Below, in pieces: positions 3,733 to 16,141 of a stretch of 64,000 nucleotides of DNA (positions are counted from its first letter, which is position 1; each line of letters begins with the position of its first letter). The stretch is taken from assembly GCA_027924025.1 (NCBI GenBank), contig AP026970.1, forward strand, positions 1,014,501-1,078,500, written 5' to 3'. Position numbers and translations under genes: made by a program. This stretch comes from Comamonadaceae bacterium OS-4. GTDB taxonomy: Bacteria > Pseudomonadota > Gammaproteobacteria > Burkholderiales > Burkholderiaceae_C. The notes below the pieces were generated by a model. The model was not told the DNA's origin and made no database searches. It saw only the letters and a program-made list of their open reading frames with translations.

Positions 3733-4143
3733 ATGAAAAAAACAATTTTGACAGTTGAGGACGGCGACGGCATTCGCCGGCTGATTCGCATGACGCTCGA
3801 ATATATGGGCTTTCTTGTGCTGGAGGCCAATGGCGGTGAGCAGGGCCTCGAAATGGCGCGTGAACACAAGCCCGACCTCGTGCTGATGGATGTCCGGATG
3901 CCCGGCGTTTCCGGGCTGACGGCCTGCGAAGTCATGCGCGCAGACCCCCAGCTTCGCAACGTGCCAGTGGTCATGTTGTCGGCCGCCGGTTCGGAGGACG
4001 ACATCTCAGCCGGCATGGCAAGCGGCGCCAAGGCTTATCTGGTGAAGCCCTTTCAGCCTGTGGAGCTGATTGAGCTGGTGACCCGCCTGATTGACGAGGC
4101 GGCCCAGCCAGAGCCTGCAGCCGCCGGCGCGGCCCACCGGTAA
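3733..4143 (+). CDS. Single-domain response regulator (CheY-like), first gene of chemosensory operon
   Basis: 136 aa, a stand-alone receiver. The acidic pair E9/D10, phospho-acceptor D53 (VLMDVRMP) and K in YLVKPF are present; the switch Thr position is Ser (MLSAAGS), as in many receivers. The frame is open far upstream but those codons are antisense to the ydcF-like gene; ATG 3733, at the start of the receiver fold, is the real start. A short Ala/Pro-rich tail follows the domain. It opens the plus-strand array operon and is one of three single-domain receivers in it, so it may be a phosphate sink or a dedicated output protein. Confidence 0.88.
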   Translation: MKKTILTVEDGDGIRRLIRMTLEYMGFLVLEANGGEQGLEMAREHKPDLVLMDVRMPGVSGLTACEVMRADPQLRNVPVVMLSAAGSEDDISAGMASGAKAYLVKPFQPVELIELVTRLIDEAAQPEPAAAGAAHR

Positions 4144-4271
4144 CTCACAAGGCTCTTTCATGTTTTCCCCAGCAGCGCAATGGAATATGGCCGGGCCCCG
4201 GCGCTGCCCTTTCGTTCTCGTCAACCCTGCGCCCAGCTGCTTGCAACTCTCCCCCGAAAGGACTCACTCCC

Positions 4272-14119: not shown

Positions 14120-15370
14120 ATGTTGCAAGCTTTTGACATACCTTGGCTTCACCGCCTGTGGATGACCGGCCTCGTGTGGGGCGGTGTCAGTGTGGCCATG
14201 TACTGGCTGGCCCCTTGGGGCCTCGCCCACACTGCAACGGTTTTGGGTGGCTCCAAACCTTGGGAGTATTTGGCCGTATCGCTGCTGGCCATCGCCTTGG
14301 CCGGGGGCTTGAACCTGGTGGTGCACCGGGCATGGCAGCACGCCCGCAGCGCAAGCCGGGGCGTGGGAGCCCACGCCCGGATGCCGCCCGACATGGCCGC
14401 TGCCGAGCTGCGCCACGTGGCGCCCTACCTGGAGGTACTGGCCCAGCAGCTCGATGGTTCGGTGAGTGACACCGAAGAAGGCGTCATGAACGTCATCAAA
14501 ATTGTGGATTCGGTGTACCAGGTCTCGGGCCAACAGCTGGAGCGGATACAGGCGTCTGAAGCCAACGGGGCCGAGCTGTCAGAAGTGGTGCGCGAAAAAA
14601 TCCAGGTCGACCAGCAACTCGGTGCGATTCTGGAAATGTTCGTCCAGGACCAGCAGCGCGACATTGAAACCAACCTCGGACGGCTCAAGCGTCTGCAAGA
14701 GGTGAAGGCTTTGACTCCTTTGGTGGATGTGATTTCCAACGTCGCACGGCAAACCAACTTCCTGGCCATCAACGCTGCCATTGAGGCCGCCCGTGCCGGC
14801 GAAAGCGGCCGTGGTTTTGCGGTGGTGGCAGCCGAAATCCGGGTGCTATCCAACCGGACTGCAGAGGTTGCGGTGGACATTGCACGCCGCATCAGCTCGG
14901 CCACCGACGGGATCGATCAAGAGCTGGAAAGCGTGGAGAGCCATACAGACCGGCACTCCTCAGCCGGCAACATGCGCAAGGTGCTGGACGACATTAACGC
15001 GATGCAAGCGCGCTTTGCGGAGGGCTCGGCGAGTCTGCTGGAAATCGTGGAGGGTGTGCGCAGCGGCCATATGGAGATCGTGCACAAGCTCTCGGAGGCG
15101 CTGGGTCAAATTCAGTTCCACGATGTGATCCGCCAGCGTATCGAGCAAGTGCAGGGCGCCATGCATGAGCTCAACAGCCATTTGCAGAGCGTGGCCGATC
15201 AGATGCACGACAAGCCTTGGGACCGTGAGGGCATGGTGTCCCTCACCCAGCAACTGGAGCAACAGGTGTCCCGCTATGTGATGGCCAGCCAGCATTTGGC
15301 GCACAAAACCGCCACTGGTGGTGAAGCGCAGGTCAGTAACGACGGTTTGCCCAAGATCGAGCTCTTCTAA
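14120..15370 (+). CDS. Membrane-anchored receptor-like protein with CheZ-like C-terminal motif
   Basis: 416 aa. Two hydrophobic helices (about 10-32 and 46-66) with no sizeable periplasmic domain, then a coiled coil with one receptor tip at about 210-247 (VARQTNFLAINAAIEAARAG then GRGFAVVAAEIRVLS). The cytoplasmic rod is short, and near the C-terminus QFHDVIRQRIEQV (D335, Q339) matches the DxxxQ signature with which CheZ dephosphorylates CheY-P (D143/Q147 in E. coli CheZ). There is no separate cheZ, cheC or cheX in the operon. It could link the otherwise soluble array to the membrane and act as its phosphatase; the latter is inference from a short motif. Confidence 0.88.
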   Translation: MLQAFDIPWLHRLWMTGLVWGGVSVAMYWLAPWGLAHTATVLGGSKPWEYLAVSLLAIALAGGLNLVVHRAWQHARSASRGVGAHARMPPDMAAAELRHVAPYLEVLAQQLDGSVSDTEEGVMNVIKIVDSVYQVSGQQLERIQASEANGAELSEVVREKIQVDQQLGAILEMFVQDQQRDIETNLGRLKRLQEVKALTPLVDVISNVARQTNFLAINAAIEAARAGESGRGFAVVAAEIRVLSNRTAEVAVDIARRISSATDGIDQELESVESHTDRHSSAGNMRKVLDDINAMQARFAEGSASLLEIVEGVRSGHMEIVHKLSEALGQIQFHDVIRQRIEQVQGAMHELNSHLQSVADQMHDKPWDREGMVSLTQQLEQQVSRYVMASQHLAHKTATGGEAQVSNDGLPKIELF

Positions 15371-16141
15371 ATGCCACAAGCCCGCGTACTCGTGATCACC
15401 AACCGCAAAGGCGGTACCGGCAAGACCTCGATGGCGGTCAACCTGGCCAGCGAATATGCCGCCCGCGGCCGCCGGGTCTTGCTCATTGACCTCGATAGCC
15501 AGAGCCACTGTGCGATAGGCCTCGGGGTGCCGCAAGTGCGGGGTGCCGCTTCCGCCCAGGGGTTTCTGGCGGGGCATAACACCTTGCGGCAGGCGCTGCG
15601 CCCTTGCGCGGTGCGGGGCCTGGACCTAGTTCCGGCAGACCCTTTGTTCAACCACGGGGGGTCGGGGGATACCTCGACCGCGCTGGGTTTGGCGCTGGCC
15701 GCCGAGGGTTTGCTCGCGGACTACGACTTGATTGTGCTGGACACACCGCCTTCGCTGGACGGCTTGTTGCTCAACGCCTTGTGCGCTGCCGACCGGGTGT
15801 TGGTCCCCTTTGTGCCCCATTTTTTGTCGGGAGAGGGCGTCCGGCAGTTGGCGCGTGTGATTTTCCGGGTCGCCAGCCGCGGCATGAACGATAACTTGAA
15901 GGTGCTGGGTTTTGTGCCGGTGATGCTCGATGCGCGCATTGGCCTGCACCGCGAGGTCTGCGAGGACTTGGGCCAGCAATTCGGGCGGAACCGTCTGCTG
16001 CCCGGCATCCGGGTGGATATCCGGGTGGCCGAGGCGTTCGGCCGTGGCAAGCCGGTGCGGCAGCATGCCGCGCACAGCCGGGCGGCTCAAGACTATGCCG
16101 TTGTGGCCGATGCGATTGAGCGTTTGTGGATCTCTGTTTAA
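15371..16141 (+). CDS. ParA/MinD-family ATPase at end of chemosensory operon
   Basis: 256 aa with a deviant Walker A KGGTGKT (K13 and K18), Walker A' LLIDLDSQSH and a Walker B-like LIVLDTPPSLDG. The ATG directly follows the receptor gene stop (TAAATG), so it belongs to the operon. No ParB homologue is adjacent, which argues against chromosome partition. Orphan ParA ATPases in other chemosensory operons (PpfA of Rhodobacter sphaeroides, ParC of Vibrio) position or segregate arrays; the same role is inferred here. Confidence 0.88.
   Translation: MPQARVLVITNRKGGTGKTSMAVNLASEYAARGRRVLLIDLDSQSHCAIGLGVPQVRGAASAQGFLAGHNTLRQALRPCAVRGLDLVPADPLFNHGGSGDTSTALGLALAAEGLLADYDLIVLDTPPSLDGLLLNALCAADRVLVPFVPHFLSGEGVRQLARVIFRVASRGMNDNLKVLGFVPVMLDARIGLHREVCEDLGQQFGRNRLLPGIRVDIRVAEAFGRGKPVRQHAAHSRAAQDYAVVADAIERLWISV

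What the first reader, a model, noticed from the sequence alone, without database searches (positions are those of the whole stretch)
3733..16141. Self-contained, mostly cytoplasmic chemosensory operon ending in a ParA ATPase
Twelve genes in one direction with overlaps or tiny gaps: receiver, soluble double-tip receptor, triple CheW, CheB, HEAT protein, CheR, receiver, CheA, STAS-like protein, CheY, short membrane receptor-like protein, ParA. No flagellar, pilus or ligand-binding-domain genes are linked. Cytoplasmic arrays with a ParA homologue are known (R. sphaeroides PpfA), but this combination of duplicated docking modules, HEAT and STAS-like proteins I do not recognise as a described system. 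Inference: an array that partitions at division and controls something other than swimming, perhaps the adjoining HTH-receiver regulators.
Basis: partly seen in the sequence, partly recalled or inferred. Interest (0 to 1): 0.85.

Follow-up and report, generated by a model that had tools for sequence, protein, structure and literature searches.

The report
F9-class cytoplasmic chemosensory operon
This is a member of an already named class of internal bacterial sensory arrays whose job is still unknown, and the comparison suggests that one of its proteins, until now taken for a receptor, is the enzyme that switches its signal off.

Summary
The twelve genes at 3733-16141 are real, but the system is not undescribed. 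A double-tip receptor (DosM) beside a triple CheW (CheW3) is the published signature of chemosensory class F9 (Vibrio cholerae cluster I). In 85 related loci nine genes (DosM, CheW3, CheB, HEAT, CheR, receiver, CheA, STAS-like, CheY) occur wherever the locus is long enough to judge; gene 11 in 78 of 80; ParA in at least 54 of 78. A non-swimming output is not supported: 48 of 49 carrier genomes tested have flagellin (74 of 100 in the window's family), and in Polynucleobacter the operon adjoins motAB and flhA. Published mutants lack chemotaxis defects, so the output stays open. New here: gene 11, the 'short membrane receptor', is probably a membrane-anchored CheY phosphatase. It has an invariant CheZ-like DxxxQ and an ELF-type tail; some forms lost the receptor tip but keep both; in seven Azospirillum records this CheY and gene 11 are gone and a CheC phosphatase lies beside the operon; and a small protein of the genome's other che operon has the same motif and tail. 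An RsbRST stressosome set follows gene 11 in 16 of 100 loci.

The parts
3733..4143 (+). Receiver protein (gene 1); accessory, separated by 128 nt; matches of 50% identity or more in 10 loci only
   Evidence: Pfam Response_reg E 2.7e-27; spacing; matches
4272..6197 (+). DosM: soluble double-tip receptor, tips at residues 178 and 478, no membrane segment
   Evidence: two MCPsignal stretches; tips and hydropathy; 69 of 69 assessable loci; two tips by a strict pattern in 71 of 80 long frames, one in 9
6214..7770 (+). CheW3: three concatenated CheW domains
   Evidence: three CheW stretches; three domains in 81 of 81 long frames
7791..8870 (+). CheB (receiver plus methylesterase)
   Evidence: 74 of 74 loci
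8881..9504 (+). HEAT-repeat protein, core F9 component
   Evidence: HEAT_2 E 2.5e-24; 79 of 79 loci; alignment A1
9509..10348 (+). CheR methyltransferase
   Evidence: 80 of 80 loci
10354..10722 (+). Receiver between CheR and CheA
   Evidence: 81 of 81 loci
10719..13466 (+). CheA: Hpt, conserved linker segment without Pfam match over the cut-off, dimerisation, kinase and CheW-like domains
   Evidence: 85 of 85 loci (anchor gene, so by construction)
13466..13708 (+). Small STAS-like protein; the stretch that carries the phospho-serine in STAS proteins (recalled) reads H-x-H-x-A in most members
   Evidence: weak STAS_2; sequences; 85 of 85 loci
13719..14093 (+). CheY output receiver, 43% identical to the CheY of this genome's other che operon
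   Evidence: 82 of 82 loci
14120..15370 (+). Gene 11: membrane-anchored receptor-tip protein with CheZ-like DxxxQ (D335, Q339) and C-terminal IELF; predicted CheY phosphatase
15371..16141 (+). ParA-type ATPase with deviant Walker A (KGGTGKT); optional partner
   Evidence: Pfam AAA_31 E 1.1e-31; sequence; 54 of 78 loci
16271..18696 (+). Adjoining HTH-receiver, histidine kinase, HTH-receiver cassette; lineage-specific neighbour
   Evidence: Pfam; HTH-receivers matched in 8 of 100 loci

Best explanation
This is an F9-class chemosensory operon. DosM dimers, with a signalling tip at each end, bridge two opposed CheA/CheW3 baseplates to form a double-layered cytoplasmic array (shown by others for the V. 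cholerae class member; inferred here). DosM has no sensory domain, so signals enter through partner receptors or through the HEAT and STAS-like proteins (inferred). CheR and CheB tune the receptors. CheA phosphorylates the two small receivers; the second (13719-14093) is the output CheY (inferred). Gene 11 is not mainly a receptor: it is a membrane-tethered, CheZ-like phosphatase that removes phosphate from that CheY, using D335/Q339 as the catalytic pair and the IELF tail as a CheY-docking peptide; its receptor-like tip would let it dock on CheA/CheW (inferred from sequence and gene exchange). ParA is an optional positioning factor. The likeliest output is modulation of the flagellar motor under internal stress or low oxygen, but the target is not shown.
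For: F9 signatures present and published as signature components (PMC9321776 passages; PMC7534058 two sections). Nine-gene core in every assessable one of 85 loci; in 8 further loci eight of these genes in 8 of 8 and CheY in 7 of 8, the eighth having it on the other strand. Gene 11: Q-x-x-D-x-x-x-Q invariant in alignments of 44 and 31 rows, with the final F, and in the second also E of the tail; motif in 88 of 94 frames, the six others being 3 apparent ordinary receptors, 2 fragments cut by the locus end and 1 sequence with ambiguous letters. Tip-less 260-275 aa forms keep motif and tail. The Pfam CheZ model, run over whole genomes, hits gene 11 of L096 at E 1.8e-4 over the motif (mapped by coordinate arithmetic); profile comparison aligns motif on motif, P 0.0087. 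Seven of 7 Azospirillum records opened lack gene 10 and gene 11 and have a linked CheC. An extra CheY-gene 11 pair sits in L049. In the own genome the motif pattern falls in gene 11 and in a 149-aa protein beside CheY/CheA, both ending IELF. CheT of S. meliloti is a precedent for a DXXXQ phosphatase without CheZ sequence homology (PMC12654446 passages). Flagellin in 48 of 49 carriers tested.
Against: No activity is shown. The window's gene 11 itself does not match the CheZ family; 3 of 44 members match weakly, best 0.001; hhalign probability is 2%, with a shallow CheZ alignment of 10 sequences out of 28 loci tried. Structure predictions (pTM 0.45 and 0.38) show long helices; the first resembles receptors, and no CheZ row appears among the rows shown. 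Two of 80 loci (L080, L107) have CheY but no gene 11, and the motif pattern found no such protein elsewhere in those genomes. Of the six pattern matches in the own genome, two (identical) lie in a 139-aa open frame of doubtful coding status and two in no frame of 80 aa. Unlinked CheX-family genes are common (29 of 33 genomes), so only linkage of CheC is informative, and the Azospirillum case is one lineage. CheC also occurs beside gene 11 in L103 and L110. V. cholerae cheA1 deletion has no detectable phenotype and A. brasilense che2 is stated not to be needed for chemotaxis, against a motor output.
Confidence: 0.72

Rival explanations
1. Gene 11 is an ordinary short (24H) chemoreceptor of the F9 array or of the main flagellar array, as suggested for V. 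cholerae VC1394; the DxxxQ stretch is a structural helix motif.
For: All 44 aligned members match MCPsignal; the model aligns with the E. coli receptor tip (6s1k chain E, residues 177-278, Z 12.3, rmsd 1.6, 102 aligned); PMC7534058 section 8.1 reads VC1394 as a 24H receptor.
Against: Tip-less forms keep only membrane anchor, motif and tail; motif and tail stay constant where the rest diverges; exchange with CheC in Azospirillum; same motif and tail in a tip-less protein beside CheY in the own genome.
Confidence: 0.25
2. The system controls a non-motility output (gene expression or stress response), for example through stressosome proteins or the HTH-receiver regulators.
For: RsbR-RsbS-RsbT-RsbX downstream of gene 11 in 16 of 100 loci (Pfam on one example); no chemotaxis phenotype reported in V. 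cholerae or A. brasilense.
Against: Flagellin in 48 of 49 carriers tested and complete flagellar sets in 97% of published F9 species; Polynucleobacter linkage to motAB and flhA; HTH-receivers in only 8 of 100 loci.
Confidence: 0.35
3. A new partitioning array system defined by ParA, related to R. sphaeroides CheOp3/PpfA.
For: ParA family gene in the operon; PpfA positions the R. sphaeroides array (PMC3964821 passages).
Against: ParA not found in 24 of 78 assessable loci (an upper bound) and absent in 7 of 7 Azospirillum records; variable in position; ParA homologues in che operons are common anyway, 77 of 206 species (PMC2829493 passages); charge of the DosM N-terminus does not differ with ParA presence (means 1.9, n 36, and 1.8, n 19); double-tip receptor and single CheA differ from CheOp3.
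Confidence: 0.1

Closest known systems
Chemosensory class F9: V. cholerae cluster I (VC1394-VC1406)
   Same: Double-signalling-domain receptor DosM, concatenated triple CheW, CheA, CheB, CheR, two CheY, a 24H membrane receptor encoded in the cluster
   Different: ParA and adjoining HTH-receivers here; V. cholerae gene order is inferred from published locus numbers, its sequence was not compared; HEAT and STAS-like proteins are not named in the passages read
Azospirillum brasilense Che2
   Same: Same order DosM-CheW3-CheB-HEAT-CheR-REC-CheA-STAS-like; that this operon is Che2 is inferred from the products listed in PMC8561660 (passages)
   Different: No gene 10 CheY, gene 11 or ParA; CheC linked instead
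Rhodobacter sphaeroides CheOp3 (TlpT/PpfA)
   Same: Cytoplasmic array with ParA homologue in the operon
   Different: Split CheA3/CheA4 and a soluble receptor TlpT of classical form there
Myxococcus xanthus Che7
   Same: Chemosensory system associated with a HEAT-repeat protein (PMC9040617 passages)
   Different: Mcp7 of 821 aa with one signalling domain, single-domain CheW7 (PMC3945109 table passages)
CheZ and CheT (S. meliloti) CheY phosphatases
   Same: DxxxQ motif; CheT works without sequence homology to CheZ
   Different: Gene 11 has a membrane anchor and a receptor tip; not a CheZ family member by Pfam cut-off; CheT sequence was not compared

Membership tests
Chemosensory class F9 | Receptor with two signalling domains in tandem and no sensory domain (DosM) | tested here: met
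   two MCPsignal stretches and no other Pfam family at E<=0.01; tips at 178 and 478, no membrane segment
Chemosensory class F9 | Adaptor with three concatenated CheW domains (CheW3) | tested here: met
   three stretches; 81 of 81 long frames
Chemosensory class F9 | CheA, CheB, CheR and CheY in the same cluster | tested here: met
Chemosensory class F9 | CheA placed in F9 by the published class models | not testable with these tools
   class models not on hand; no V. cholerae sequence compared
Chemosensory class F9 | Double-layered cytoplasmic array in cells | not testable with these tools
   needs cryo-tomography
R. sphaeroides CheOp3 type | CheA split into two proteins | tested here: not met
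   one CheA with Hpt, dimerisation, kinase and CheW-like domains
R. sphaeroides CheOp3 type | ParA homologue in the operon | tested here: met
M. xanthus Che7 type | HEAT-repeat protein with the che cluster | tested here: met
M. xanthus Che7 type | Single-domain CheW and receptor with one signalling domain | tested here: not met
CheZ family (PF04344), gene 11 | Match over the curated cut-off | tested here: not met
   own-genome search finds two other proteins only; 3 of 44 members at E<=0.1
CheZ family (PF04344), gene 11 | DxxxQ catalytic pair | tested here: met
   D335 and Q339 invariant in 44 members
CheZ family (PF04344), gene 11 | Long four-helix hairpin dimer (recalled) | tested here: inconclusive
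   monomer models of low pTM; matches are receptors and unrelated coils

The most novel reading that the evidence does not exclude
The membrane 'receptor' of F9 systems (gene 11 here; by gene position VC1394 in V. cholerae) is a hybrid in which a receptor tip docks a CheZ-like phosphatase on the array. It belongs to a wider, unnamed family of CheY phosphatases marked by Q-x-x-D-x-x-x-Q and a C-terminal ELF-type peptide, with tip-less forms inside F9 operons and in other che operons. F9 arrays also carry constant HEAT and STAS-like parts and recurrently couple to a stressosome module.
Probability: 0.6. Interest if true: 0.62.

Novelty: new member of a known kind. Interest (0 to 1): 0.45.

Why it matters
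F9 arrays are structurally well studied but have no known function. A dedicated phosphatase gives a direct handle: it predicts which CheY carries the signal, how it is switched off, and which residues to change. The nine-gene core shows that HEAT and STAS-like proteins are standing components rather than bystanders, and the recurrent stressosome neighbour suggests an input or output to test.

Tried and rejected
Rejected: chance clustering (order repeated in all assessable loci); ParA as the defining gene (54 of 78); co-variation of the DosM N-terminus with ParA (no difference); HTH-receivers as conserved output (8 of 100). A first presence table counted gene 11 and the receivers too generously because DosM frames match the gene 11 profile; it is superseded and not used. 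CheZ as fold: Foldseek and VIA-align listed receptors and generic coils, no CheZ row among the 50 rows shown of each; this shows nothing either way. The second model (tip-less form) had pTM 0.38 and was not searched. A genome-wide CheX search was meant to find substitutes in L080 and L107, but the family is common (29 of 33 genomes). A plasmid search with the 149-aa protein found nothing. Literature searches listed no paper whose title or abstract start names a phosphatase role for VC1394, a HEAT or STAS-like role in F9, or an F9-stressosome link. Of the 12 papers only two were opened (PMC7534058, PMC11940527). The library lacks most subscription papers, including the DosM paper itself, and no supplementary table was read.

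Limits of the counts: the 85 loci are 80 of 249 confirmed relatives kept by the tool, chosen by CheA similarity, plus five loci, so they sample the nearer part of the class. The flagellin count used 49 of the 80 loci, chosen by me with preference for long contigs and isolates. Seven of the 12 Azospirillum records were opened. ParA counts are lower bounds: L062 has a ParA cut by the contig end, and in several stressosome-bearing loci the stretch held ends before ParA could appear. Dropped from gene 11 counts: the six frames named in the For line. Loci too short for a gene were left out of that gene's denominator.
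Full report
WHAT IS THERE. Twelve genes run in one direction from 3733 to 16141. Gene 2 has two signalling tips (residues 178 and 478) and no membrane segment; gene 11 is the only protein with a strong membrane segment. Genes 2 to 12 are packed with gaps of -4 to 26 nt; gene 1 lies 128 nt upstream and the next gene 129 nt downstream. 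The genome has four CheA proteins; the other three are 32 to 37% identical to this one over the matched part. It has thirteen CheW-domain matches, three of them in gene 3 and one in this CheA. The nearest named loci, 96 to 100% identical over most of the operon, are a Rhodoferax MAG and a Comamonadaceae MAG (L032, L031).

HOW CONSERVED IT IS. A CheA search at E<=1e-100 found it in 6 of 100 genomes of the window's family, the own genome included. A scan of named genomes with the CheA dimerisation region confirmed 249 relatives, of which the best 80 were kept; their titles name Burkholderiales, Chromatiaceae, Methylococcales, Desulfovibrio, Desulfobulbus and others. With five further family loci this gave 85. 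Assigning each reading frame to its best profile, DosM is present in 69 of 69, CheW3 in 71 of 71, CheB 74 of 74, HEAT 79 of 79, CheR 80 of 80, receiver 81 of 81, STAS-like 85 of 85, CheY 82 of 82, gene 11 in 74 of 80 at 100 bits, ParA in 54 of 78, where n counts the loci that have the gene or are long enough to judge. Four of the six low gene 11 cases (L051-L053, L104) carry the tip-less form, so 78 of 80; L080 and L107 lack it. In a sample of 369 genomes of the class of Methylobacter, 11, the centre genome included, have a HEAT orthologue at E<=5e-50, with a clear gap to the next score of 6e-16; the four of these loci that I opened have the same ten genes, DosM to gene 11, two of them with ParA inserted before CheY.

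WHAT CLASS IT IS. [quoted passage not shown] The review PMC7534058 (sections 5 and 8.1 of its own numbering) describes the V. cholerae F9 system, cluster I: DosM (VC1403), triple CheW (VC1402), CheA (VC1397), a double-layered cytoplasmic array, no detectable phenotype for cheA deletion, clusters induced by low oxygen, and a short 24H membrane receptor (VC1394). Read with PMC11940527 (passages), the published order of the named genes fits the order here, and the two unnamed positions VC1400 and VC1396 would fall where HEAT and STAS-like lie; this last step is inference from locus numbers, as no V. cholerae sequence was compared. The system is therefore a member of a named class.

GENE 11. In the alignment of 44 full-length members thirteen columns are invariant: eight in the receptor-tip region (L215 to L243), E119, and outside these Q332, D335, Q339 and the terminal F416. 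With the tip-less forms first, the invariant columns in 31 rows are Q175, D178, Q182, Y230, E258 and F260 of the Polynucleobacter protein. D-x-x-x-Q is the CheZ catalytic motif (recalled; named as a phosphatase motif for CheT in PMC12654446, passages). One of the two CheZ proteins of this genome reads DFQDLSGQ and ends DDLLASLGF. The whole-genome CheZ search hit gene 11 of L096 at 1.8e-4 over the stretch that holds the motif (position worked out from coordinates). Profile comparison of 79 gene 11 C-termini with 10 CheZ sequences put QFQDVVRQRIERV on DFQDLTGQIIKRV without guidance, P 0.0087, but with 2% probability. The window's own protein does not reach the CheZ family, so the claim is that it works like a CheZ, not that it is one by family test.

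Four observations make the functional reading stronger than the motif alone. First, L051-L053, L104 and L098 have forms of 260 to 275 aa that lost the receptor tip but keep membrane anchor, motif and tail. Second, seven Azospirillum plasmid records (of 12 hit) keep eight core genes but lack gene 10, gene 11 and ParA in 7 of 7, and each has a CheC-type phosphatase gene beside the operon, upstream in six and about 2 kb downstream in the seventh, whose contig begins at DosM. Nine CheC copies were found; two were confirmed by Pfam, and all eight that I examined have two ExxN motifs. CheC is also listed among che2 products detected by proteomics in A. brasilense, where che2 has no known function and is said not to be needed for chemotaxis (PMC8561660 passages). 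Among the other 93 loci a CheC of this type occurs in two, L103 and L110, together with gene 11. The Azospirillum case is one lineage and so perhaps one event. Third, in L049 an extra CheY-gene 11 pair is inserted between CheB and HEAT. Fourth, in the own genome a pattern for Q-F/Y-Q/H-D-x-x-x-Q matches six places (reversed control: one). Two lie in genes of che operons: gene 11, and a 149-aa protein directly upstream of CheY and CheA of another operon; both end in IELF. Two identical matches lie in a 139-aa frame of doubtful coding status and two in no frame of 80 aa or more. Against this stand L080 and L107, which have the CheY without gene 11 and show no such protein elsewhere by the pattern.

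WHAT IT MAY DO. Flagellin is found in 48 of the 49 carrier genomes tested, against 74 of 100 genomes of the window's family; five of the six carriers in that family have it. The two groups differ in taxonomy, so this is a trend; it agrees with the published 97%. In Polynucleobacter L053 the operon is followed on the other strand by motB, motA, a sigma factor and flhA (Pfam; order), and flagellin, CheZ and the second CheA of that genome lie on the same contig within about 40 kb. The output CheY is 43%, and the receiver of gene 7 44%, identical to the CheY of the genome's other che operon. This favours a link with flagella, but the published mutants speak against a role in ordinary chemotaxis. 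A stressosome set RsbR-RsbS-RsbT-RsbT-like-RsbX follows gene 11 within about 1.5 kb in 16 of 100 loci, many of which are too short to judge (Pfam on one example); it was not seen among the genes read next to the operon in the window.

VERDICT. The gain is a testable reassignment of the membrane 'receptor' as a phosphatase, and the recognition of HEAT and STAS-like proteins as constant parts of the F9 operons examined.

Noticed in passing
L059, L083, L084, L091, L097, L109, L156 and nine other loci, downstream of gene 11: A stressosome set RsbR-RsbS-RsbT-RsbT-like-RsbX follows the F9 operon in 16 of 100 loci.
   Followed up: partly
L028:9042-9491 (own genome C1:633042-633491): A 149-aa protein upstream of CheY and CheA carries QFQDMASQ and ends SIELF, with no Pfam family below E 0.1: a candidate stand-alone CheY phosphatase.
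   Followed up: partly
window 11260-11490 (CheA residues about 180-255): A conserved segment between Hpt and the dimerisation domain has no convincing Pfam match in six aligned CheA proteins; possibly a divergent CheY-binding domain.
   Followed up: no
window 16271-18696: Two excisionase-like HTH-receiver proteins flank a histidine kinase; the HTH-receivers are matched in 8 of 100 loci.
   Followed up: partly
L161 (Methylosinus trichosporium plasmid): The F9 operon appears broken into many frames, while gene 11 and CheY lie on the opposite strand.
   Followed up: no
L039 and L040: Two F9 operons in one metagenome-assembled genome.
   Followed up: no
L155, L157, L163: ParA lies between the STAS-like gene and CheY rather than at the end.
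   Followed up: no
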